Virus record (IMG/VR): IMGVR_UViG_3300012147_000084
Coordinates: 1 to 24,172 of that record
Direction: 5' to 3' (one strand)
DNA length: 24,172 bases
From: a virus
Under the pieces are notes generated by a model. It saw nothing but the letters and a program-made list of their open reading frames with translations, ran no database searches and was not told the origin of the DNA. This document shows, piece by piece, positions 3,083 to 22,308 of this stretch (position 1 is its first letter; the number at the start of each line of letters is the position of its first letter). A program made the position numbers and the translations under genes.

Positions 3083-4141
3083 ATGAATAAGAAATTAATA
3101 AAAATGCCAAGTATCGACCAGTTTAGAAATGTTGTGTCTAACATAAATAGAGCGTTTAACTTTATTGGTTTGGATGATAATGGTGATGGTATTTATGATG
3201 TAACGTTAAAGAAACCAGTAATAACATTTAAAGGTAGAACTAAATGTCATGGTACTAATGGTGGTGTTTCTTTTAATGCTAAAAATGGTATTTGGGCACA
3301 ATCAAAAAATGATATAATAACACCACAAAAAGATAATGCTGGTTTTGCATTTTTTGTTGAATCTAAAGAAAGGTTTTTTGATGATTTATTTCGTCAAATT
3401 ATTATTAAAAACTCTTTAGAGTTAAACGATAATACTATAACTATTTATGGTGAATGGTGTGGTGCGAATATACAAAAGACGGTTGCTTTAGTTAATCTAC
3501 CAAAGTCTTTTTTTATATTTGGTGTTAAAATAACACCACATACTGAAAATGATGAAGAATTAAAAGATAAACCAGCATATTGGGTTGACCATTTTTATTT
3601 AAATCATAAAGATGAAAATATATTTAATATTGATGACTTTGGTGTTAAATCAATAGAAATAGATTTCAATATGCCTCAATTAGTTCAAAATGAATTGTCT
3701 GAAATAACATTAGGTGTTGAAAAAGAATGTCCAGTTGCATTAGCATTTGGTCACTCTGGAATTGGTGAAGGTGTAGTTTGGTCTGCTGAATATAAAGGTG
3801 TTGTACATAGATTTAAAGTTAAGGGAGACCTCCACGCTGGAAAATCTAAAGTTATCACACTTAAAAAGGTTGATGATGCGAAAATAAATAAAATTATTGA
3901 ACTTGCTGAAAAAGTAACACCTACATGGAGATTAAGTCAAATGCTAACTGAGGCTTGTGATTTAATGAATGGTACCACATTAGATAGGGGTAAAATGGGT
4001 GATTTTATCAGATTGGTTATAAACGATATAATCAAAGAAGATATGGACTTATTGGTTGAGGCTGGTTTAGAACCAAAAGATATTGGTAAATATGTTTCAG
4101 ACATTAGTAGACGTTATTTCTTTGACCAAGAATTAATCTAA
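3083..4141 (+). CDS. T4 Rnl2-type RNA ligase
   Basis: This 352-aa protein carries the nucleotidyltransferase motifs of the Rnl2/RNA-editing ligase family. Motif I is KCHGTN with nucleophile K54 (T4 Rnl2 has KIHGTN). Motif III is IYGEWCG at 121-127, motif IV GEGVVW at 228-233 and motif V FKVKGD at 244-249. Such enzymes seal 3'-OH/5'-phosphate nicks in structured or duplex RNA, for example broken or cleaved tRNAs. The C-terminal about 45 residues (from KMGDFIRLVINDIIKED) form a helical module that is repeated in frame just after the stop. Neighbouring 2H phosphoesterase and RlaP-type nucleotidyltransferase genes fit an RNA-repair context. An internal Met at residue 8 is an alternative start. 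Confidence 0.9.
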   Translation: MNKKLIKMPSIDQFRNVVSNINRAFNFIGLDDNGDGIYDVTLKKPVITFKGRTKCHGTNGGVSFNAKNGIWAQSKNDIITPQKDNAGFAFFVESKERFFDDLFRQIIIKNSLELNDNTITIYGEWCGANIQKTVALVNLPKSFFIFGVKITPHTENDEELKDKPAYWVDHFYLNHKDENIFNIDDFGVKSIEIDFNMPQLVQNELSEITLGVEKECPVALAFGHSGIGEGVVWSAEYKGVVHRFKVKGDLHAGKSKVITLKKVDDAKINKIIELAEKVTPTWRLSQMLTEACDLMNGTTLDRGKMGDFIRLVINDIIKEDMDLLVEAGLEPKDIGKYVSDISRRYFFDQELI

Positions 4142-4785: not shown

Positions 4786-6096
4786 ATGATTGAGAAAGAA
4801 AATGGTTTAAAATTCGCAAAATTAATTCATGTATCTGTCGATAACGGTAAAACGGATAATAGCAATAAAGTCTACATCATGGAAGAGCAAAGTGATGGTA
4901 GGATAAAGTGTGAATATGGTAGAGTAGGTAAAGTTCTAGTAACTGTCTATAAAAAGTCACATGAGTGGTCAAAAATATATAAACAGAAACTATCAACAAC
5001 AAAGGGTTATACTGATGTTACTGAATTGTTGACTGAAGTAGTTGTAGACGATGATTCATCTGAACCAAAAGATAATAAAGTTGAGAAGATTAAAGATGTT
5101 GTTGTTAAGAAATTGATTGAGGAATTGATGGCATTTGCTAATAAATCTATTCAGTCAAACTATAAAGTTACACAAGAGGCTGTTTCTGAACAACAAGTAT
5201 TGGCGGCTCAAGAAGTAATTACTAGTATTTCATCATTGATGAGTATTGGTGTTAATATAAAACATATTAACGATATGTTATTAAAATTATTTACAATTAT
5301 TCCACGTAAAATGGATAATGTTAGACATCATTTAATTTTAGATATCGTTGATAACGATTCGTTGAGTGAAGCTCAGACAATCATTGATAGTGAGCAATCA
5401 GCATTAGATACTATGGGTGGTCAAGTTGAGTTAATTAAACAACAACGAGAAGCTACTGCAAAAGCTAAAGAGATTAAAGAAAGTGGTAAGGAAGCTGTTA
5501 TTGATGATGTTAATATTCTTGACCAAATGGGGTTAAGTATTGAGGTTGAAAATGATAATGAAACTTTGGAACTTATCAAGAAATTGATGGGACCTAATTC
5601 TAATCAAATGAAAAAAGTGTATAAAGTTATTAATAACAAGACACAAGGTAAATTTGATAAAAACATGGCTAAGGCTAAGGTTAAGAAGAAAAGATATTAC
5701 TTCCATGGTTCTAGAAATGAGAATTGGTTTAATATTATGCAAACTGGATTACTTATTAGACCTTCTGGAGCAGTACATAATGGTTCAATGTTTGGTGATG
5801 GTATATACTTTGCTGATAAAGCTCAGAAATCAATTGGATATACATCACTTAGGGGTTCTTATTGGACCAAAGGTGGTAATGATAAAGCATTTTTAGCTTT
5901 ATTTGATGTTCATTTAGGTAATCAAAAAGAAATATTACATCACGACTCTAGTTGTTATAAATTATCTCAAAGTGTTTTGAAAAAAGACGATTACGATAGT
6001 GTATTTGCTAAGGGTGGTGCTGATTTAAGAAATAATGAATTTATAGTGTATAATGCAGCACAATGTACTGTATCACATTTAATTGAAATTAATTAA
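4786..6096 (+). CDS. PARP-family ADP-ribosyltransferase with N-terminal WGR-like domain
   Basis: This 436-aa protein has a PARP2/3-like layout. The N-terminal region (about 1-85) resembles a WGR domain: KVYIMEEQSDG, then YGRVGK at 44-49, where Tyr replaces the first Trp. A helical region at about 100-265 could be the PARP regulatory domain. The catalytic ART fold has the complete H-Y-E triad: H307 in FHGS, Y341 in GDGIYFADKA and E418 in NNEFIVY. PARPs transfer ADP-ribose from NAD+; an H-Y-E triad usually indicates polymer formation, and WGR domains sense nucleic-acid ends. Its place between an RNA ligase and a 2H phosphoesterase suggests a nucleic-acid-repair or NAD+-linked role. Targets cannot be told from sequence. 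Confidence 0.88.
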   Translation: MIEKENGLKFAKLIHVSVDNGKTDNSNKVYIMEEQSDGRIKCEYGRVGKVLVTVYKKSHEWSKIYKQKLSTTKGYTDVTELLTEVVVDDDSSEPKDNKVEKIKDVVVKKLIEELMAFANKSIQSNYKVTQEAVSEQQVLAAQEVITSISSLMSIGVNIKHINDMLLKLFTIIPRKMDNVRHHLILDIVDNDSLSEAQTIIDSEQSALDTMGGQVELIKQQREATAKAKEIKESGKEAVIDDVNILDQMGLSIEVENDNETLELIKKLMGPNSNQMKKVYKVINNKTQGKFDKNMAKAKVKKKRYYFHGSRNENWFNIMQTGLLIRPSGAVHNGSMFGDGIYFADKAQKSIGYTSLRGSYWTKGGNDKAFLALFDVHLGNQKEILHHDSSCYKLSQSVLKKDDYDSVFAKGGADLRNNEFIVYNAAQCTVSHLIEIN

Positions 6097-8384: not shown

Positions 8385-9107
8385 ATGACATACGAATACT
8401 TAAAAGAAAACGGTTTAATACTTTTTGAGACAGTAATAGGTAGTCAAGCTTATGGAACTCAAACACTAACATCAGATATTGATGAAAAATTTGTGTATAT
8501 ATTACCAGAGGATAATATTTTAGGTACTAAATATGTTGAACAAGTTAATGTAACAAAGGATAAAACTGGTTGGGAATTAAAAAGATTTTTAGAATTAATG
8601 GGTACTAGTAATCCAACAGTTTTAGAGTTATTAAACTCTCCCGAAGATTGTATCATAACAAAACATCCATTATTTGATTTAATTCTTGAAAATAAAGATG
8701 AATTTATAACAAAAGGGTGTAAGAATTCATTTGCTGGTTATGCCATTCAACAAATTCAAAAAGCTAAAGGTCTTAATAAGAAACAAAATTGGGAGAAAGA
8801 TAAAGTAGCTAGAAAAGATGTTTTAGATTTCGTCTATGTTATTCAAGATGAGAAAACTATTCCCCTAAAGAAGTGGATGGTTGATACTGAGTTAGAAATT
8901 AAGTTTTTTGGTGTTGTTAAAATGTCAAACGCTAGAGACATGTATACTCTTTATTATGATTGGGATGCACATAAATGTTTTTCTAATAATATATCAGACG
9001 AAGATAAAGAAAAATATAAATTAATTTTAAAAGAATTAGGTAAACCATTTGGGTTGGGTTATAAAGGTTTAGCTAAAGTTGGTGGTAATGAAGAAAACCC
9101 AGAGTAA
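8385..9107 (+). CDS. RlaP/YcgL-type nucleotidyltransferase, N-terminal half
   Basis: This 240-aa fragment contains the Pol-beta-type active site GSQAYGTQTLTSDID (S20 and the D31-x-D33 pair) of the COG3541/RlaP family of RNA-repair-associated nucleotidyltransferases. It runs through KFFGVVKMSNARDMYTLYYD and ends after GLGYKGLAKVGG. The missing C-terminal part, beginning SNQLRLSSIPKGE, is encoded at 10150-10632 after a 1-kb cassette. The last codons lie in the stem of a bidirectional terminator. Each half has its own promoter, so two polypeptides could assemble into one enzyme. Alternatively the gene is simply disrupted. Confidence 0.82.
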   Translation: MTYEYLKENGLILFETVIGSQAYGTQTLTSDIDEKFVYILPEDNILGTKYVEQVNVTKDKTGWELKRFLELMGTSNPTVLELLNSPEDCIITKHPLFDLILENKDEFITKGCKNSFAGYAIQQIQKAKGLNKKQNWEKDKVARKDVLDFVYVIQDEKTIPLKKWMVDTELEIKFFGVVKMSNARDMYTLYYDWDAHKCFSNNISDEDKEKYKLILKELGKPFGLGYKGLAKVGGNEENPE

Positions 9108-10971: not shown

Positions 10972-11017
10972 AATTGTCAAGTTTTTTTAAAAAAAATGTG
11001 AAAAAAACTTGACAATT
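10972..11017. repeat. Perfect 17-bp inverted repeat with divergent TTGAC boxes
   Basis: AATTGTCAAGTTTTTTT (10972-10988) is the exact reverse complement of 11001-11017. The right arm holds the TTGACAATT of the leader 1 promoter; the left arm presents the same box leftward toward the GIY-YIG gene. It may also act as a hairpin terminator. Confidence 0.8.
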
Positions 11018-11038
11018 GGAAAACTTTTCGTACCTTTG
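11009..11038 (+). promoter_or_regulatory. Strong promoter of tRNA unit 1
   Basis: TTG 11009-11011 within TTGACAATTGG is followed after 19 nt by TACCTTTG 11031-11038, a consensus Bacteroidetes promoter. The upstream box is almost identical to that of tRNA unit 3 (20408). Confidence 0.85.
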
Positions 11039-11076: not shown

Positions 11077-11157
11077 ATGAAAACTTTAAACACACAATTG
11101 GTCCTTTTAAACTTATGTTTACTATTAGTAGTAAACATGACGGGTCTTGTCTGTTAA
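11077..11157 (+). CDS. Leader peptide 1 (Leu/Val/Cys-rich), 26 aa
   Basis: The peptide MKTLNTQLVLLNLCLLLVVN ends MTGLVC. Of 26 residues, 9 are Leu (5 TTA codons), 4 Val and 2 Cys. The tRNAs downstream are Cys(GCA), Val(TAC), Leu(TAA)-like and Leu(TAG). The gene lies between the unit 1 promoter and a terminator placed 2 nt before tRNA-Cys. Its codons 21-23 include GACGGG, which can pair with the terminator's 5' arm. This is the layout of an amino-acid attenuator leader. All three such leaders start MKT. The proposed role is sensing charged tRNA-Leu/Val/Cys by ribosome stalling; translation is inferred. Confidence 0.7.
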   Translation: MKTLNTQLVLLNLCLLLVVNMTGLVC

Positions 11158-11194
11158 AAGAAGTAAATACTTTTAAAACAAACAGAAGCCCGTC
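11139..11194 (+). promoter_or_regulatory. Putative antiterminator of attenuator 1
   Basis: GACGGG (11139-11144) pairs with CCCGTC (11189-11194), the 5' arm of the terminator. Outer pairing is extended by CTT with AAG and by CTGTT (11151-11155) with AACAG (11181-11185), about 14 bp with small bulges. This structure and the terminator exclude each other. Confidence 0.65.
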
Positions 11195-11218
11195 TAAATT
11201 ATTAGATGGGCTTTTTTT
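11187..11218 (+). terminator. Attenuator terminator 1
   Basis: The stem AGCCCGTCT / AGATGGGCT (one G-T pair) with an 8-nt loop is followed by seven T. It ends 2 nt before tRNA-Cys, so tRNA expression requires readthrough. Confidence 0.88.
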
Positions 11219-11220
11219 AT

Positions 11221-11292
11221 GCTCCAATGACCGAGTGGTTTAGGTGACGGTTTGCAAAACCGTTTACGCATGTTCGAATCATGCTTGGAGCT
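11221..11292 (+). tRNA. tRNA-Cys (GCA)
   Basis: The acceptor is GCTCCAA/TTGGAGC with discriminator T. The anticodon stem ACGGT/ACCGT has loop TTGCAAA, giving anticodon GCA. No CCA is encoded. It is the first tRNA of unit 1. Confidence 0.92.
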
Positions 11293-11300
11293 CAAATATT

Positions 11301-12244: not shown

Positions 12245-12317
12245 TGGGATATAGCTCAGTGGAAGCAGCATCTCCTTTACATGGAGAAGGTCGTAGGTTC
12301 GAATCCTACTATCCCAA
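12245..12317 (+). tRNA. tRNA-Val (TAC)
   Basis: The acceptor is TGGGATA/TATCCCA with discriminator A. The anticodon stem TCTCC/GGAGA has loop TTTACAT, giving TAC. The T arm is GTAGG-TTCGAAT-CCTAC. It belongs to the Leu/Val/Cys unit. Confidence 0.9.
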
Positions 12318-12323
12318 CAATAT

Positions 12324-12377
12324 GCTCCGATAGTGGAACTGGTAGACACGCTATTTGAAATTAATTAAACTAAATAT
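12324..12377 (+). pseudogene. Orphan 5' half of a tRNA-Leu-like gene
   Basis: GCTCCGA followed by a class II D arm (GTGGAACTGGTAGACACGC) is a tRNA-Leu-type 5' half. After it the sequence turns AT-rich and runs into the next tRNA. No TCGGAGC 3' acceptor partner was seen in the window. It is a remnant, or one half of a trans-split gene whose partner is elsewhere. Confidence 0.6.
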
Positions 12378-12451
12378 GGTCCCGTAGCCCAATAGGCAGA
12401 GGCATCGAGCTTAAACCTCGTACAGTGTGGATTCGAATTCCATCGGGACTA
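12378..12451 (+). tRNA. tRNA-Leu (TAA)-like with short variable loop
   Basis: The acceptor is GGTCCCG/CGGGACT with discriminator A. The anticodon stem TCGAG/CTCGT has loop CTTAAAC, giving TAA, which reads UUA. The variable loop is only about 5 nt, although bacterial tRNA-Leu is class II, so the charged amino acid is uncertain. Confidence 0.75.
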
Positions 12452-12511
12452 CTAATATAAATTTTTAAATAAAAGACACGTTGTTTATATTTATTTAAAA
12501 ACTTGTAGTAT

Positions 12512-12593
12512 GCAGATATGGGGGAATTGGTAGACCCGTTGCATTTAGAATGCAATGCCGAATGGCGTGAGAGTTCGAGTCTCTTTATCTGTA
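12512..12593 (+). tRNA. tRNA-Leu (TAG)
   Basis: The acceptor is GCAGATA/TATCTGT with discriminator A. The anticodon stem TTGCA/TGCAA has loop TTTAGAA, giving TAG. There is a class II variable arm (TGCCGAATGGCG) and a T arm with loop TTCGAGT. Confidence 0.9.
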
Positions 12594-12627
12594 CGACTTT
12601 TTTATTTTTATGGTATATTTATAGTAT

Positions 12628-14377: not shown

Positions 14378-14408
14378 TTGTTTTTTCAGTACTTTGTGTG
14401 TACCTTTG
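14378..14408 (+). promoter_or_regulatory. Promoter of tRNA unit 2
   Basis: TTG 14378-14380 and TACCTTTG 14401-14408 are separated by 20 nt. It precedes leader peptide 2. Confidence 0.82.
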
Positions 14409-14433: not shown

Positions 14434-14517
14434 ATGAAAACTAATAACAACATATTTGAATTCTTTATAGCCGAGGCCGATTTTAGCCTAGGAAGGTCAA
14501 GTAATGTCATGTGTTAA
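14434..14517 (+). CDS. Leader peptide 2 (Phe/Glu/Ala/Asp/Ser), 27 aa
   Basis: The peptide is MKTNNNIFEFFIAEADFSLG followed by RSSNVMC. Its core FEFFIAEADFS is made of Phe, Glu, Ala, Asp, Ser and one Ile. The tRNAs downstream are Phe(GAA), Glu(TTC) twice plus a Glu-like one, a tRNA with CGA (Ser codon), Asp(GTC) twice and Ala(TGC). Codons 20-23 hold GGTCAAG, complementary to the terminator's 5' arm. It starts MKT and ends in Cys-stop like leader 1. It is a putative attenuation leader; translation is inferred. Confidence 0.7.
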   Translation: MKTNNNIFEFFIAEADFSLGRSSNVMC

Positions 14518-14553
14518 CTATTTAGTTTAATAATATTGATAATTAGCTTGGCC
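14495..14553 (+). promoter_or_regulatory. Putative antiterminator of attenuator 2
   Basis: GGTCAAG (14495-14501) pairs with CTTGGCC (14547-14553) with one U-G wobble. The pairing extends by TAAT (14502-14505) with ATTA (14542-14545) across a single bulge. It competes with the terminator. Confidence 0.65.
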
Positions 14554-14573
14554 GAAACGCCAAGCTTTTTTTT
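14545..14573 (+). terminator. Attenuator terminator 2
   Basis: The stem AGCTTGGC / GCCAAGCT with loop CGAAAC is followed by a run of eight T. Confidence 0.9.
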
Positions 14574-14596
14574 GTTTATAAAAATAAAAATAAACA

Positions 14597-14628
14597 TTAG
14601 GTATAACGAAATAAAATACATACCTTTG
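14597..14628 (+). promoter_or_regulatory. Promoter P1 before tRNA-Phe
   Basis: TTAGGTATAACGAA at 14597 and TACCTTTG at 14621-14628, offset 24 nt. Transcripts from here include the boxA-like motif. Confidence 0.75.
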
Positions 14629-14643
14629 TAACAACAACAACAA

Positions 14644-14660
14644 CGTACTTTGACATAATT
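14644..14660 (+). promoter_or_regulatory. boxA-like antitermination element, unit 2
   Basis: CGTACTTTGACATAATT resembles the CTTTGACATATTGG sequence in Bacteroidetes rRNA operon leaders, the presumed NusB/NusE boxA. Similar copies lie at 17603 and 20741. Confidence 0.55.
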
Positions 14661-14700
14661 AATAACGATAAAAAAATAAATTAATTTATTTTAAAAAACA

Positions 14701-14732
14701 TTAGGTATAACGAAATAAAATACATACCTTTG
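14701..14732 (+). promoter_or_regulatory. Promoter P2 before tRNA-Phe
   Basis: An identical copy of P1: TTAGG at 14701 and TACCTTTG at 14725-14732. Transcription would begin a few nt before tRNA-Phe (14752), bypassing the attenuator and boxA. Confidence 0.75.
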
Positions 14733-14751
14733 TAACAACAAAATAAATAAT

Positions 14752-14824
14752 GGTTCTGTAGCTCAGTTGGTAGAGCATCGCATTGAAGATGCGAGTGTCA
14801 AGGGTTCGACTCCCTTTGGAACCA
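14752..14824 (+). tRNA. tRNA-Phe (GAA)
   Basis: The acceptor is GGTTCTG/TGGAACC (two wobbles) with discriminator A. The anticodon stem TCGCA/TGCGA has loop TTGAAGA, giving GAA. It is the first tRNA of unit 2. Confidence 0.93.
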
Positions 14825-14875
14825 CAATAAAAATAAGTCTTAAATATCCTATGAACAAGATAGGGGACTATAAAT

Positions 14876-14948
14876 GTTCCAGTGGACAAACGGTTAAGTC
14901 GTCTGCCTTTCACGTAGAAGATTGCGAGTTCGAATCTCGTCTGGAATA
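14876..14948 (+). tRNA. tRNA-Glu (TTC), copy 1
   Basis: The acceptor is GTTCCAG/CTGGAAT with discriminator A. The anticodon stem TCTGC/GTAGA has loop CTTTCAC, giving TTC. The T arm is GCGAG-TTCGAAT-CTCGT. A small CCTAT/ATAGG hairpin precedes it. Confidence 0.9.
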
Positions 14949-15106
14949 CTAGAGCGGTTTACTTACCAGAATCGAAGGGTATTGGTTTACGAAAAAACCA
15001 TAAACACAATTTAATGAAAATTTAAATGTTGTATGATTCGGTGGTCTTGTACGTTCTATCAAGAACGTTCCTAGGGGGTGTCACTCTAAGGCAGTACCTC
15101 TTAAAT
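14949..15106 (+). other. Intergenic spacer between tRNA-Glu genes
   Basis: These 158 nt have no ORF or recognisable tRNA. A clear hairpin ACGTTC-tatca-AGAACGT lies around 15051-15068, and TTGGTTT pairs with AAACCA near 14982. They may be processing structures or an unknown small RNA. Confidence 0.3.
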
Positions 15107-15178
15107 GCTCCCATCGTCTAACGGTTAGGACGTTACCTTTTCAAGGTAGAAACGAGAGTTCGATTCTCTCTGGGAGTA
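15107..15178 (+). tRNA. tRNA-Glu (TTC), copy 2
   Basis: The acceptor is GCTCCCA/TGGGAGT with discriminator A. The anticodon stem TTACC/GGTAG has loop TTTTCAA, giving TTC. The T arm is GAGAG-TTCGATT-CTCTC. Confidence 0.9.
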
Positions 15179-15183
15179 CTATA

Positions 15184-15208
15184 AAACAATTACTGTAATT
15201 GTTTTTTT
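15184..15208 (+). terminator. Possible rho-independent terminator inside the tRNA array
   Basis: AAACAATTA / TAATTGTTT has a 3-nt loop and a run of seven T. It is AT-only and weak, and if active it would need antitermination (boxA 14644). Confidence 0.55.
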
Positions 15209-15248
15209 AGAAACCATGAGATAGGTTTACAGACTTAAATTGTGGTTC

Positions 15249-15318
15249 CGTGTGCTCGTCTAATGGATAGGACAACTACTTTCGGTAGTAAATTTGGGTT
15301 CGAGTCCCAAGCACACAA
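15249..15318 (+). tRNA. Aberrant tRNA, Glu-like, with shortened anticodon loop
   Basis: The six inner acceptor pairs GTGTGC/GCACAC are perfect, but the first pair is C-A. The D arm (GTCTAATGGATAGGAC) is of Glu type and the T arm is TTGGG-TTCGAGT-CCCAA. The anticodon arm reads ACTAC-TTTCG-GTAGT, a perfect stem with a 5-nt loop. With a 7-nt loop (CTTTCGG) the anticodon would be TTC. It is 70 nt long, shorter than normal. Confidence 0.6.
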
Positions 15319-15566
15319 CAAACCATCGATGTGTATGGTAACTTTGTATCTTAGTTACCCCAATTCGAAAGTGTTCACTAGAGACTAACAAGTTTCTAAA
15401 CATTATTAGTAAAGTCAAAGATGCCAGTTCGGGTTTTTAGTAGAAAACCACTAGTGGAGGTTTGGTAATCACAATGGGTTAGTCCCATGGAGATACTGTG
15501 AAAACTGAAAACATCATATTAGTGTCCCCTCAATAGGTTCTTACACAAGTCGGTTATGAGAGGGTG
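15319..15566 (+). ncRNA. Structured spacer, possible small RNA
   Basis: No ORF or tRNA is visible in 248 nt, but inverted repeats are numerous: GGTAAC/GTTACC near 15338, CACTAG paired with CTAGTG about 80 nt later, GGTTTT/AAAACC and ATGGG/CCCAT. No match to the group I intron core was found. Confidence 0.35.
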
Positions 15567-15650
15567 GATTAAGTAGCTCAGTTGGTTAGAGCAAGAGTCT
15601 CGAAAGTGTAAATGAACTCGTGGTCGTTGGTTCGAGTCCAACCTTAATCT
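15567..15650 (+). tRNA. Interrupted tRNA (CGA if spliced), 10-nt insertion in anticodon loop
   Basis: The acceptor is GATTAAG/CTTAATC, the D arm GCTC/GAGC and the T arm GTTGG-TTCGAGT-CCAAC, all perfect. The anticodon stem is AGAGT/ACTCG with a 17-nt loop. Removing AGTGTAAATG at the canonical 37/38 intron position restores loop CTCGAAA with anticodon CGA (Ser codon UCG). The body is class I, unusual for Ser. Leader 2 contains Ser. Confidence 0.7.
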
Positions 15651-15721
15651 CAAACGCCCAAGTAGCTAGAGTTACGTCTAGTATGGGTTTTGAGTATGAC
15701 TGTTAGGAAAGACTAACATAC

Positions 15722-15792
15722 GGTCTCATTGTCTAATGGCTAGGATATATCACTGTCGATGATAGGGTCGGGTTCGACTCCCCGTGGGACCG
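15722..15792 (+). tRNA. tRNA-Asp (GTC), copy 1
   Basis: The acceptor is GGTCTCA/TGGGACC with discriminator G. The anticodon stem TATCA/TGATA has loop CTGTCGA, giving GTC. Confidence 0.9.
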
Positions 15793-15799
15793 CCAAAAT

Positions 15800-15872
15800 G
15801 GAGATGTAGTACAATTGGTAGTATGCCTCGTTGTCTGCGAGACGGTTGTGGGTTCGAGTCCCATCATCTCCG
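15800..15872 (+). tRNA. tRNA-Asp (GTC), copy 2
   Basis: The acceptor is GGAGATG/CATCTCC with discriminator G. The anticodon stem CCTCG/CGAGA (outer pair mismatched) has loop TTGTCTG, giving GTC. Position 37 is T, where a purine is usual. Confidence 0.85.
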
Positions 15873-15986
15873 CTAGGTGTTACACAAATCCTATGGGAAT
15901 ACCCATATAGGGAACACGTAAAGTAGATTAGATAAATTGATAGCGACTTGTATTTAAGTGTAATAAAGATACGAAATCTAATATTT
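15873..15986 (+). other. Structured spacer
   Basis: There is a compact hairpin CCTATGGG-aata-CCCATATAGG flanked by GTGTT/AACAC (15876-15917), then TAGATT paired with AATCTA around 15926-15980. There is no ORF. It could be a processing signal or a small RNA. Confidence 0.35.
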
Positions 15987-16059
15987 GGGGATGTAGCTCA
16001 ATTGGTTGAGCATTACCTTTGCAAGGTAAAGGATGTGAGTTCGAGTCTCATCATCTCCA
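15987..16059 (+). tRNA. tRNA-Ala (TGC)
   Basis: The acceptor GGGGATG/CATCTCC includes the G3-U70 pair that defines alanine identity, with discriminator A. The anticodon stem TTACC/GGTAA has loop TTTGCAA, giving TGC. Confidence 0.95.
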
Positions 16060-16077
16060 CTAAAAAAAATAAATACA

Positions 16078-17882: not shown

Positions 17883-18041
17883 GCATTAATGATTAAGTTC
17901 ATCGGAATTAGTGGTTGTACACAAAAAACGTGTACGTAATCCGTCAATGCAACGGCCCACCCAAAAAAATTGATAATGGGATATGTAAAGATGTAGTTCG
18001 TCCTACATTGAGTCTAGGCAGCATATCTGACGGCATTATCA
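17883..18041 (+). ncRNA. Structured RNA upstream of the interrupted tRNA-Leu
   Basis: Two domains are visible. In 17883-17950, GCATT/AATGC encloses CGGAaTTA/TAATCCG and GTACAC/GTGTAC. In 17971-18041, TGATAATG/CATTATCA encloses GATATG/CATATC and ATGTAG/CTACAT. The second ends 2 nt before a tRNA acceptor. No ORF is present. Identity is unknown. Confidence 0.55.
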
Positions 18042-18043
18042 TA

Positions 18044-18180
18044 GTCGCTATGGTGGAAGTGGCATACACACCGCACTAACCCGTCTCTATTGAGACTAGC
18101 TCTAGATTAATCATTTAGGTTTATGGGGTGAAAAGTGGGCCATTGATTCTGGTTTGTAGGTTCGAATCCTTCTAGGGACA
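18044..18180 (+). tRNA. Interrupted class II (Leu-like) tRNA
   Basis: The 5' part GTCGCTA-TG-GTGGAAGTGGCATACACAC has a Leu-type D arm. The 3' part has a variable arm (CCA/TGG around TTGATTC), T arm GTAGG-TTCGAAT-CCTTC and acceptor TAGGGAC with discriminator A, pairing 6 of 7 with the 5' acceptor. CACT/AGTG may be the anticodon stem. The span is 137 nt versus about 87 normal, so about 48 nt are inserted, including a GTCTC/GAGAC hairpin. Confidence 0.55.
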
Positions 18181-19129: not shown

Positions 19130-19260
19130 AAGATTATTTCAGCAAACAAAACTGAAAGCCCTTTTAAAGCCGTGGTCGTGGGTTCGAGTCCCACTCTGAG
19201 AAACCCTATGGGGGTCTTAGGTAGCTCAGTTGGTAGAGCACGTTCAAAAAAAATAATCTT
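19130..19260 (+). tRNA. Putative circularly permuted tRNA gene
   Basis: The 3' half comes first: T arm GTGGG-TTCGAGT-CCCAC (19178-19194), then acceptor TCTGAGA (19195-19201) and A. After a 12-nt linker comes a 5' half: TCTTAGG (19215-19221), TA, and D arm GCTCAGTTGGTAGAGC. The two acceptor strands pair at all seven positions (two wobbles). AAGATTATTT (19130-19139) before the 3' half is perfectly complementary to AAATAATCTT (19251-19260) after the 5' half, in the place of the extended anticodon stem. The anticodon cannot be read with confidence. Confidence 0.6.
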
Positions 19261-19270
19261 GTCCTTTTAT

Positions 19271-19388
19271 ATGGAAATAGCTTAATTGGTAGAGCGTTAT
19301 CTCTAAATGCGTTTGTGATGTTCGATTCATCTTTAATATGGTAACATGACGTAAGGTAAATATTTAGGTTCGAGTCCTAATTTCTGTA
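19271..19388 (+). tRNA. Interrupted tRNA with about 46-nt insertion in the anticodon loop
   Basis: The acceptor ATGGAAA (19271-19277) pairs at all seven positions with TTTCTGT (19381-19387). The D arm is GCTT/GAGC, the anticodon stem TTATC/GGTAA (19297-19301 and 19355-19359), and the T arm TTAGG-TTCGAGT-CCTAA. The loop region is 53 nt instead of 7. The insertion itself contains a T-arm look-alike GATGTTCGATTCATC. Position 33 would be C and the anticodon is unclear. Confidence 0.65.
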
Positions 19389-19390
19389 CG

Positions 19391-20407: not shown

Positions 20408-20438
20408 TTGACAATTGGGAAAAGATTTAGTACCTTTG
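20408..20438 (+). promoter_or_regulatory. Strong promoter of tRNA unit 3
   Basis: TTG 20408-20410 in TTGACAATTGGG and TACCTTTG 20431-20438, spacing 20 nt. The upstream box is nearly identical to that of unit 1. Confidence 0.83.
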
Positions 20439-20492
20439 TAATGTAGTTAGAAAGATAAGTAAAAAAAAATATTAAAATAATAGAACTTTTAC

Positions 20493-20500
20493 TATCTTTG
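20493..20500 (+). promoter_or_regulatory. Second -7 box TATCTTTG before leader 3
   Basis: TATCTTTG 43 nt before the leader ATG could be a tandem promoter. No TTG at the expected distance. Confidence 0.45.
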
Positions 20501-20542: not shown

Positions 20543-20650
20543 ATGAAAACAACAGTAATGACATATCAAACGAAACAGTATACGAAGGGTGGGCAACCGC
20601 AACCTAAATCGACTGGGCGTGTCATGTTGTTTGACTTGACAAATATATAA
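20543..20650 (+). CDS. Leader peptide 3 (Thr/Gln/Tyr/Gly/Pro), 35 aa
   Basis: The peptide is MKTTVMTYQTKQYTKGGQPQ followed by PKSTGRVMLFDLTNI. Seven Thr, four Gln, three Gly, two Tyr and two Pro make 18 of 35 residues. The tRNAs downstream are Pro(TGG) twice, Gln(TTG), Tyr(GTA), Thr(TGT) and Gly(TCC), plus one with unreadable anticodon. Four Lys are also present (one in the MKT start). Codons 24-26 contain ACTGGGC, complementary to the terminator 5' arm. Codon choice (CCG, ACG, TCG, GGG) differs from neighbouring genes, as expected if RNA pairing constrains it. It is a putative attenuation leader. Confidence 0.7.
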   Translation: MKTTVMTYQTKQYTKGGQPQPKSTGRVMLFDLTNI

Positions 20651-20679
20651 GAATTTTAAATAATCTTATAAGGCCCAGT
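20612..20679 (+). promoter_or_regulatory. Putative antiterminator of attenuator 3
   Basis: ACTGGGC (20612-20618) pairs perfectly with GCCCAGT (20673-20679), the 5' arm of the terminator. A TATAAGA/TCTTATA hairpin lies between. Confidence 0.65.
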
Positions 20680-20705
20680 TCAGAGAAATCTAAACTGGGT
20701 TTTTT
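20674..20705 (+). terminator. Attenuator terminator 3
   Basis: The stem CCCAGTTCAGA / TCTAAACTGGG (one mismatch) with GAAA tetraloop is followed by six T. Confidence 0.9.
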
Positions 20706-20804: not shown

Positions 20805-20879
20805 CGGGATATGGACTAACGGCTAAGTCACTCCGTCTGGAGCGGAGGCATCATGCAAGTTCGAATCTTGCTATCCCGA
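20805..20879 (+). tRNA. tRNA-Pro (TGG), copy 1
   Basis: The acceptor CGGGATA/TATCCCG with C1-G72 and discriminator A is typical of Pro. The anticodon stem CTCCG/CGGAG has loop TCTGGAG, giving TGG, with an unusual C at position 33. Confidence 0.85.
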
Positions 20880-20882
20880 CCT

Positions 20883-21028
20883 TGTTGTGTAGTTTAACAA
20901 AGGCAACTATAAGTACTAATAATTATTAACTGAGAAGTACAATCAGTGAAAGGTGTTAGAAAAGTAGTCGCAGAATTAGAATATGGGCAGATAGGCCACA
21001 GATATAGGTGCAAACCCTATCACAATAA
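20883..21028 (+). tRNA. Interrupted tRNA with long insertion
   Basis: The 5' part is TGTTGTG-TA and D arm GTTTAACAAAGGCAAC. The 3' part is T arm ATAGG-TGCAAAC-CCTAT and acceptor CACAATA (21021-21027) with A. The acceptor strands pair at all seven positions (one wobble). About 95 nt separate D and T arms instead of about 23. AGTAC/GTACT and ACTGA/TCAGT helices lie in the insertion. T54-T55 is changed to TG. The anticodon cannot be read. Confidence 0.5.
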
Positions 21029-21032
21029 TTAA

Positions 21033-21104
21033 CGGGGATGAGTTGTAATGGTTTGCATACACCACTTGGACTGGTGAGGAAAAGTTCGATTCTTGCATCC
21101 CCGA
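21033..21104 (+). tRNA. tRNA-Pro (TGG), copy 2, weak T stem
   Basis: The acceptor is CGGGGAT/ATCCCCG with discriminator A. The anticodon stem CACCA/TGGTG has loop CTTGGAC, giving TGG. The T stem is AAAAG/CTTGC, with two mismatches. Confidence 0.82.
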
Positions 21105-21166
21105 CTTGTAGACTGTTATTAATACATAGGTGCGTTGGTATCAACGGATGCGTAGAATTAAATTAT

Positions 21167-21239
21167 TGTCCCATGGTGTAATTGGCAACACGTTCGGTTT
21201 TGAGCCGAAAGAGTCTAGGTTCGAACCCTAGTGGGACAA
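21167..21239 (+). tRNA. tRNA-Gln (TTG)
   Basis: The acceptor is TGTCCCA/TGGGACA with discriminator A. The anticodon stem TTCGG/CCGAA has loop TTTTGAG, giving TTG. The T arm is CTAGG-TTCGAAC-CCTAG. Confidence 0.93.
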
Positions 21240-21276
21240 CCCTTGACTTTTTTGTACTATTGTGTATATTATACAT

Positions 21277-21912
21277 ATGAGGAAAGAAAATAATATTCAT
21301 TACTTGTATAAGACTACTTGTAATGTAAACAACAGATACTATATCGGTATGCATTCAACCAATGACTTGGAAGATGGGTACATGGGTAGTGGTAGGAGGC
21401 TTAGAGCTTCCATAAGTAAACATGGTGATGATAACCACACTAAAGAGGTGTTAGAGTTCTTTGGGACTAGGGAGCTTCTGATTGAAGCTGAAATAGAAGC
21501 AATCACAGATGATATGATTACGGATAAGGACTGTATGAATCTAATGGGAGGTGGAACGGGAGGTTATATAAGCGAGCAACATTACCAACTAACATCTAAA
21601 CTTGGTGGTGATAAACATGCTGAACGAATGAAGAATGATAAGGAATATAGGAATAAAACACTATCGACCTTATCCGATAATAGCAAGAAGGTACATGAAG
21701 AAGGTAAGGTTAAGTTACCAACGTTTAGTGGGTTAACACATTCGGATGAGTCTAAAGAAAAGATGAGTAATAAGGCCAAGGAAAGAGTTGGTGAAAAGAA
21801 CTCACAATTTGGTACTTGTTGGATAACCAAGGAGGGTCATGGTAATAAGAAGATTAAAAAAGAAGTTCTTGATTTCTATATAGAACAGAATTGGGAGAAG
21901 GGAAGAAAATAA
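21277..21912 (+). CDS. GIY-YIG homing endonuclease with NUMOD3 domain
   Basis: This 211-aa protein has an N-terminal GIY-YIG domain: HYLYKTTCNVNNRYYIGMHS, then GSGRRLRASISKHG and a conserved Glu-rich helix (LLIEAEIEAI). A NUMOD3-type DNA-binding tail follows (FSGLTHSDESKEKMS, then NSQFGTCWITKEG). This is the SegA/I-TevI layout. ATG 21277 is preferred to an upstream GTG (21262). It sits between tRNA-Gln and tRNA-Tyr, so it may home into tRNA spacers. Its last about 60 residues are paralogous to the product of 23422-23829. Confidence 0.9.
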   Translation: MRKENNIHYLYKTTCNVNNRYYIGMHSTNDLEDGYMGSGRRLRASISKHGDDNHTKEVLEFFGTRELLIEAEIEAITDDMITDKDCMNLMGGGTGGYISEQHYQLTSKLGGDKHAERMKNDKEYRNKTLSTLSDNSKKVHEEGKVKLPTFSGLTHSDESKEKMSNKAKERVGEKNSQFGTCWITKEGHGNKKIKKEVLDFYIEQNWEKGRK

Positions 21913-21973
21913 CGAGTAAATTTTATATTTTTAACTAGTACTTAACCTTCTAAGGGGTAAATAAAAATAAAAT

Positions 21974-22055
21974 GGGGGTACGCCAAAGTTGGAGAGTTGG
22001 GACGGTCTGTAAAACCGTTGCGTAAGCTGAGTAGGTTCGATTCCTACTACCCTCA
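21974..22055 (+). tRNA. tRNA-Tyr (GTA)
   Basis: The acceptor is GGGGGTA/TACCCTC with discriminator A. The anticodon stem ACGGT/ACCGT has loop CTGTAAA, giving GTA. The variable arm is class II. Confidence 0.93.
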
Positions 22056-22109
22056 CGGTATGCTGTTAGATTTTAAGCTTCTTTTACCTAGAAGGTAAAA
22101 AATCAATTT

Positions 22110-22181
22110 GCTCCTAAAGCATAAACGGTGATGTGCTAGTCTTGTAAACTAGAGAACTCAGTTCGATTCTGAGTAGGAGCT
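22110..22181 (+). tRNA. tRNA-Thr (TGT)
   Basis: The acceptor is GCTCCTA/TAGGAGC with discriminator T. The anticodon stem CTAGT/ACTAG has loop CTTGTAA, giving TGT. A TTTTACC/GGTAAAA hairpin lies 10 nt upstream. Confidence 0.93.
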
Positions 22182-22226
22182 CAAATTAATTTCGACTTAG
22201 CTTTTTAGCTTTTCGTTATAATAAAT

Positions 22227-22308
22227 GCGGTAGAGGTTCTAGTGGAAGAACACTGGCCTTCCAAGTCAGATAAAGTTCACATCGTAGGTTCGAATCCTAT
22301 CATCCGCT
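22227..22308 (+). tRNA. tRNA-Gly (TCC) with mispaired acceptor and enlarged variable loop
   Basis: The anticodon stem CTGGC/GTCAG has loop CTTCCAA, giving TCC. The D arm is GTTC/GAAC, the T arm GTAGG-TTCGAAT-CCTAT and the discriminator T. The acceptor GCGGTAG/CATCCGC is mismatched at two positions, and the variable loop is about 14 nt (usual 5). The 5' acceptor pairs perfectly with a tRNA 3' end 1.1 kb downstream (23357-23363), so this may be a recombinant of two tRNA genes. Confidence 0.75.

What the first reader, a model, noticed from the sequence alone, without database searches (positions are those of the whole stretch)
11077..11218. Attenuator 1: Leu/Val/Cys leader with about 14-bp antiterminator, terminator 2 nt before tRNA-Cys
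Fifteen of 26 leader residues are Leu, Val or Cys. GACGGG-CTT-CTGTT in the leader pairs with AACAG-AAG-CCCGTC overlapping the terminator 5' arm. The terminator's U-tract ends directly at the tRNA, so transcription must pass it to make tRNA-Cys.
Basis: seen in the sequence. Interest (0 to 1): 0.8.

Follow-up and report, generated by a model that had tools for sequence, protein, structure and literature searches.

The report
Phage tRNA arrays with codon-sensing attenuators
A virus of bacteria appears to switch on each of its tRNA gene clusters through a short "test" peptide whose codons need exactly the tRNAs encoded in that cluster, so the virus makes replacement tRNAs only when ribosomes run short of them; the same layout recurs in many unrelated large phages.

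Summary
The 26-codon leader (11077-11157; 15 Leu/Val/Cys), the antiterminator and a terminator abutting tRNA-Cys are all present and far beyond chance. The window holds two more such units, each matching its own array. A composition-blind rule found 48 leader-terminator-tRNA units in viral contigs, three complete 635-735 kb phage genomes and two cultured phages (Gundel_1, phi17:2), then 13 more leaders, including five homologs of this one. Leaders match their own array, not others (27 clusters: 0.44 vs 0.20; 0 of 20,000 permutations). They match only in the translated frame and mainly upstream of the predicted ribosome-release switch. Antiterminator and terminator covary. Caulobacter/Brevundimonas jumbo phages carry an analogous leader. 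Best explanation: ribosome-mediated (trp-type) transcription attenuation that senses shortage of charged tRNAs and controls the tRNA genes themselves. The mechanism class is known. Its use on phage tRNA arrays, with one leader sampling several isotypes, was not found in the papers searched. No wet-lab evidence exists.

The parts
10972..11017 (+). perfect 17-bp inverted repeat overlapping the upstream promoter region (role unknown)
   Evidence: the repeat finder
11031..11038 (+). promoter -7 element TACCTTTG (Bacteroidetes TAnnTTTG type) of unit 1
   Evidence: consensus as stated for flavobacteria in PMC9723704
11077..11157 (+). leader peptide 1 MKTLNTQLVLLNLCLLLVVNMTGLVC
   Evidence: homologs in L187, L188, L217, L223, L237
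11086..11133 (+). sensor codons (residues 4-19, mostly Leu/Val/Cys)
   Evidence: matching codons lie mainly before the predicted switch codon
11139..11155 (+). antiterminator 5' segment, in the distal part of the leader ORF
11181..11194 (+). antiterminator 3' segment, overlapping the terminator 5' arm
11184..11218 (+). intrinsic terminator 1 with U-tract
11221..11293 (+). tRNA-Cys(gca), first gene of array 1
12245..12594 (+). tRNA-Val(tac), tRNA-Leu(taa), tRNA-Leu(tag), rest of array 1
14401..14408 (+). promoter element of unit 2
14434..14517 (+). leader peptide 2 MKTNNNIFEFFIAEADFSLGRSSNVMC
14494..14503 (+). antiterminator 5' segment of unit 2
   Evidence: z -2.7
14545..14573 (+). intrinsic terminator 2
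14621..14732 (+). two duplicated promoters (14621, 14725) downstream of terminator 2, which could bypass attenuator 2
14752..16060 (+). array 2: Phe, Glu, Glu, Glu, one undetermined, Asp, Asp, Ala
20431..20500 (+). promoter elements of unit 3 (20431 and 20493)
20543..20650 (+). leader peptide 3 MKTTVMTYQTKQYTKGGQPQPKSTGRVMLFDLTNI
20610..20619 (+). antiterminator 5' segment of unit 3
   Evidence: z -2.8
20671..20705 (+). intrinsic terminator 3
20805..22308 (+). array 3: Pro, Gln, Tyr, Thr, Gly

Best explanation
Each unit is a ribosome-mediated transcription attenuator that controls a phage tRNA array according to how well ribosomes can decode the codons those tRNAs serve. Transcription starts upstream and a ribosome begins the leader peptide. 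If charged tRNAs for the sensor codons are scarce, it stalls in the first two thirds of the leader; the distal leader RNA stays free, pairs with the 5' arm of the terminator, and RNA polymerase reads through into the tRNA genes (sometimes also the cognate aminoacyl-tRNA synthetase). If all sensor codons are read quickly, the ribosome reaches the stop codon, covers the antiterminator segment, the terminator forms and transcription stops before the first tRNA. One leader samples several isotypes, so a shortage of any one can turn on the array (OR logic). Shown by computation: the anatomy, the leader-array match, its restriction to the translated frame and mainly to the pre-switch part, the predicted switch position, covariation. 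Inferred: translation, stalling, termination and readthrough in cells, and the biological trigger (tRNA loss through host shut-off or anticodon nucleases).
For: 48 rule-selected units. In 27 non-redundant clusters, match to own array is 0.44 vs 0.20 permuted, 0 of 20,000; isotype coverage 0.95 vs 0.63; in each of 8 genomes the true pairing is the single best permutation, including 1 of 5040 twice; stratified test 0 of 100,000. Translated frame 0.585 vs 0.211; other two frames show no enrichment. Match 59% before the predicted switch vs 19% expected, 23% vs 18% after it. Terminator 5' arm predicted sequestered while the ribosome is early in the leader and freed near its end in nearly all; own antiterminator duplex -11.4 vs -6.9 to -7.7 kcal/mol for crossed pairs, 0 of 20,000. 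Five homologs of unit 1 keep Leu/Val/Cys, with covariation in antiterminator and terminator. Codon choice: Ile(tat) arrays use ATA 18 of 24, Ile(gat)-only arrays 2 of 10, Fisher p 0.006 (sequences not fully independent). Natural swap: L086 has one merged Tyr/Glu/Ile/Gly/Ala array and one merged leader, L049 and L087 have two arrays and two leaders. Poly-Gln leader, then Gln tRNAs, then a GlnRS/GluRS-family synthetase in L064.
Against: No transcript, ribosome-profiling or reporter data. At equilibrium the full terminator usually beats the antiterminator, so the switch must act co-transcriptionally. Attenuator 2 is followed by two promoters that could bypass it. Some leader residues match no downstream tRNA (Lys in leader 3, Asn in leader 1). 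No 1:2 protector hairpin overlapping the antiterminator segment is seen, unlike trp. L084's second leader was mis-started by the rule and its first has no good antiterminator (z +1.5). 11 of 48 duplexes are weak (z > -1).
Confidence: 0.87

Rival explanations
1. The short ORFs are not regulatory; they resemble their arrays because of shared genome composition, and the terminator merely ends upstream transcription.
For: Short ORFs and terminators are common in AT-rich DNA; the equilibrium fold favours the terminator in most units.
Against: Within-genome permutations control for composition; the match is confined to the translated frame and mainly to the pre-switch stretch; antiterminators covary; the rule gives 1 hit with no match in 80 bacterial loci with 67 tRNAs.
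Confidence: 0.03
2. The leader RNA senses uncharged tRNA directly by codon-anticodon pairing, as in a T-box, without a ribosome.
For: The sensed molecules are tRNAs and the leader carries their codons.
Against: Codons form one open frame with start and stop, several isotypes in a row, stop codon 17-47 nt before the terminator; no T-box match in Rfam; the predicted switch depends on ribosome position.
Confidence: 0.03
3. The same attenuator anatomy, but the signal of interest is amino-acid starvation of the host rather than loss of tRNA itself.
For: Classical attenuators respond to amino-acid supply through charging (Elf and Ehrenberg, PMC1183508); some arrays carry a synthetase.
Against: The regulated product is tRNA, not biosynthesis enzymes; grouping of unrelated amino acids in one leader follows the tRNA genes, not pathways. 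Charged-tRNA level integrates both signals, so this is partly compatible with the best explanation.
Confidence: 0.2
4. Stalling has the opposite sign: it promotes termination, so arrays are on when tRNAs are plentiful.
For: Sign is inferred from structure only.
Against: The predicted antiterminator is free when the ribosome is upstream and covered near the stop codon in nearly all units.
Confidence: 0.04

Closest known systems
trp/his/leu-type ribosome-mediated transcription attenuators of amino-acid operons
   Same: leader peptide with regulatory codons, distal antiterminator segment, overlapping intrinsic terminator, ribosome-position switch
   Different: controls tRNA genes of a phage; product and sensed molecule are the same kind; one leader samples 1-10 isotypes; no protector hairpin seen, so untranslated RNA is predicted to read through
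Leader-peptide attenuators in flavobacteria (PMC9723704)
   Same: same host phylum and promoter type; attenuation reported upstream of amino-acid biosynthesis operons
   Different: cellular biosynthesis genes, not tRNA arrays
T-box riboswitches
   Same: respond to tRNA charging and control translation-related genes
   Different: bind uncharged tRNA directly; no Rfam match here and no ribosome needed
Phage tRNAs as counter-defence (PMC10264068, PMC11555353)
   Same: phage tRNAs replace host tRNAs destroyed by defence nucleases
   Different: those papers describe the tRNAs or a strong promoter, not a feedback switch

Membership tests
Ribosome-mediated (trp-type) transcription attenuator | short leader ORF enriched in regulatory codons tied to the genes controlled | tested here: met
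Ribosome-mediated (trp-type) transcription attenuator | intrinsic terminator between leader and first structural gene | tested here: met
Ribosome-mediated (trp-type) transcription attenuator | mutually exclusive antiterminator using the distal leader ORF and terminator 5' arm | tested here: met
Ribosome-mediated (trp-type) transcription attenuator | protector (1:2) hairpin giving termination without translation | tested here: not met
   with the whole leader free the terminator arm is predicted sequestered; this feature belongs to trp proper and is not taken as required of every attenuator
Ribosome-mediated (trp-type) transcription attenuator | leader translated in vivo and readthrough rising on stalling | not testable with these tools
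   needs experiment; translated-frame restriction is indirect support
T-box riboswitch | T-box and specifier architecture | tested here: not met
   no Rfam match other than tRNA in the window at gathering thresholds
Known Rfam amino-acid operon leaders | match to a curated leader family | tested here: not met

The most novel reading that the evidence does not exclude
A widespread, perhaps convergent class of phage tRNA-supply sensors: each tRNA array carries its own multi-isotype codon sampler with OR logic, on by default if translation fails, serving as an inducible defence against host tRNA destruction or depletion; present in Bacteroidetes phages, huge phages and Caulobacter jumbo phages, and possibly KVP40-type vibriophages, whose leader has 19 of the 20 amino acids.
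Probability: 0.5. Interest if true: 0.93.

Novelty: new variant of a known kind. Interest (0 to 1): 0.88.

Why it matters
Why phages carry tRNAs, and how their expression is controlled, is a long-standing question. These leaders state in sequence which shortages a phage monitors, array by array, and predict that phage tRNAs are made on demand. Cultured phages (phi17:2, Gundel_1, phiCbK) make it directly testable. The leader/array match also gives a way to find phage attenuators and to read likely tRNA-targeting pressures from genomes.

Tried and rejected
Equilibrium folding of complete leaders does not discriminate, because the terminator wins in most; it was replaced by co-transcriptional folding. 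A distant DNA search of leader 2 finds nothing: leaders diverge fast, so neighbouring proteins were used to reach relatives. Intended negative controls: T4, Aeromonas phage 65, Serratia phage BF and crAss001 gave no unit; Xanthomonas XbC2 one spurious hit without match; KVP40 and CcrColossus turned out positive-looking and were followed up. KVP40 is only suggestive, because its array has nearly all isotypes and any leader would match. T-box and pure-composition explanations rejected (see rivals). Ten literature searches found no precedent, but only open-access papers are held.

Full report
WHAT IS THERE. The window is an IMG/VR virus record of 24,172 bases. Its promoters are of the TAnnTTTG type, the sigma-A consensus of flavobacteria (PMC9723704), and its DNA ligase is closest, among the annotated phage records searched, to Cellulophaga phage phi17:2 at 49.7% identity. 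The finding is exact: leader ORF 11077-11157, antiterminator segments 11139-11155 and 11181-11194, terminator 11184-11218, tRNA-Cys at 11221. The antiterminator alone folds at -19.6 kcal/mol (z -4.8) and the terminator at -19.2 (z -6.9). No TAnnTTTG promoter lies between 11038 and tRNA-Cys.

THE KEY POINT. The leader's Leu, Val and Cys are the isotypes of array 1 (Cys, Val, Leu, Leu). The window has two more units: leader 2 (FEFFIAEADF) before Phe, Glu x3, Asp x2, Ala, and leader 3 (TYQTKQYTKGGQPQP) before Pro, Gln, Tyr, Thr, Gly.

RELATIVES. Loci near related proteins, three complete huge-phage genomes (LR745206, LR756501, LR756502; taken from memory to be from the huge-phage study PMC7162821, not checked) and cultured phages show the same layout. 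Examples: HKNFSKSHKWF before His, Phe, Trp, Lys; YNDYCIND before Ile, Cys, Asp, Asn, Tyr; QQIQQQQ before three Gln tRNAs; in phi17:2, IQRLHLQELEQP before Pro, Glu, Gln, His, Leu, Leu, Arg. In phi17:2 a second leader, annotated as hypothetical protein gp077 and probably starting at an internal GTG, reads TKTGITVIDKTKGARA before Ala, Lys, Ile, Gly, Met, Asp, Thr, Val, Arg. A further scan gave five direct homologs of leader 1, such as MKTINNILVLNLCLLLVVVSFGLC and MKTSLTNLVLVLCLLVADWVGFAC. Four precede Cys-Val-Leu arrays; the fifth precedes Cys near the end of its contig. The scan also gave a further type, MRTINIHMISISNWRRNS, before His, Trp, Ile, Ser, Asn, Arg.

STATISTICS. A rule that ignores composition (terminator before a tRNA, ORF stop up to 50 nt upstream of the stem) gave 48 units in the first set. 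After clustering leaders to 27, own-array match is 0.44 against 0.20 in permutations, 0 of 20,000 as high. Within each of eight genomes the true assignment is the best of all permutations, and the stratified test gives 0 of 100,000. The match holds in the translated frame (0.585 vs 0.211) and not in the other two frames, which argues for translation. It lies before the predicted switch (59% vs 19% expected) and largely not after it (23% vs 18%).

RNA SWITCH. With a ribosome early in the leader, the terminator's 5' arm is predicted to be paired by the distal leader; with the ribosome near the stop codon it is free. Own leader-arm duplexes are stronger than crossed ones (0 of 20,000). In six homologs of unit 1, both antiterminator and terminator show changes on both sides of 5 pairs; none of 500 shuffles reached the antiterminator count and one reached the terminator count, and every slid control is lower. 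The equilibrium fold of the whole region favours the terminator, so the switch must be kinetic, as is usual for attenuators (own knowledge).

SUPPORTING DETAILS. Arrays with Ile(tat) use ATA in the leader; Ile(gat)-only arrays mostly use ATT (18 of 24 vs 2 of 10 ATA, p 0.006; not fully independent). When two arrays are merged in one phage (L086) the leaders are merged too. The poly-Gln unit of L064 is followed by a synthetase of the Glu/Gln family, and the Leu unit of L056 lies in a region with a class I synthetase of the Ile/Leu/Met/Val group.

BEYOND BACTEROIDETES PHAGES. CcrColossus, chosen as a control, carries MMTYRNNVRQIRVRQFN before Val, Ile, Gln, Asn, Arg tRNAs with a -26.9 kcal/mol antiterminator. 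Related leaders occur in Papperlapapp, Kikimora, CcrBL10, CcrSC (with Phe in both leader and array) and phiCbK. KVP40-type leaders are suggestive only. crAss001, T4, Aeromonas 65 and Serratia BF gave none. 80 bacterial loci with 67 tRNAs gave one non-matching hit, but these loci were centred on GlnRS, so host tRNA operons were not surveyed.

LITERATURE. Ten searches of the open-access library found no description. The phiCbK genome paper reports that Rfam found only tRNAs, and the huge-phage paper does not mention attenuation or leaders. Subscription papers and preprints are mostly not covered, so absence is not proof.

LIMITS. All evidence is computational. Unit 2 has two promoters after its terminator and could be partly constitutive. 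The trigger (amino-acid limitation, host shut-off, or anticodon nucleases) is inferred.

Noticed in passing
window 14589-14741: A 49-nt promoter-containing sequence is duplicated (98% identical) between terminator 2 and tRNA-Phe; it may bypass attenuator 2.
   Followed up: partly
window 10972-11017: Perfect 17-bp inverted repeat AATTGTCAAGTTTTTTT just upstream of and overlapping the unit 1 promoter region; CTTGACAATTGG also occurs upstream of unit 3.
   Followed up: no
window 3083-4141 and 8385-9107: RNA ligase and an RlaP-type RNA-repair nucleotidyltransferase family protein, plus a PARP-domain protein at 4786-6096: possible tRNA repair or counter-defence set.
   Followed up: no
window 12322-12360, 18040-18180, 19216-19390: tRNA-like fragments, or tRNAs with insertions in or near the anticodon arm (the Rfam tRNA match at 19271-19388 spans 118 nt); degenerate, split or intron-bearing tRNAs are possible.
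   Followed up: no
window 15567-15651 and 21033-21105: tRNA of unclear anticodon (ARAGORN 'cg', loop CTCGAAA) and a tRNA-like sequence missed by ARAGORN with a TGG-type loop.
   Followed up: no
L049:7377-8192: Huge phage encodes a Thg1-family tRNA-His guanylyltransferase next to its tRNA arrays.
   Followed up: no
L060:4586-4735: ARAGORN reports two tRNAs with anticodon cta (labelled Pyl), reading TAG, in the 735-kb phage LR756501: possible stop-codon suppressors.
   Followed up: no
L074:3443-3562: phi17:2 gp077, annotated as a hypothetical protein, is probably a leader peptide with a wrong start codon.
   Followed up: yes
L094 (reverse strand, position 5084): KVP40 leader of 37 residues contains 19 of 20 amino acids before a nearly complete tRNA set; homologous leaders in ValKK3, F86 and K566.
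   Followed up: partly
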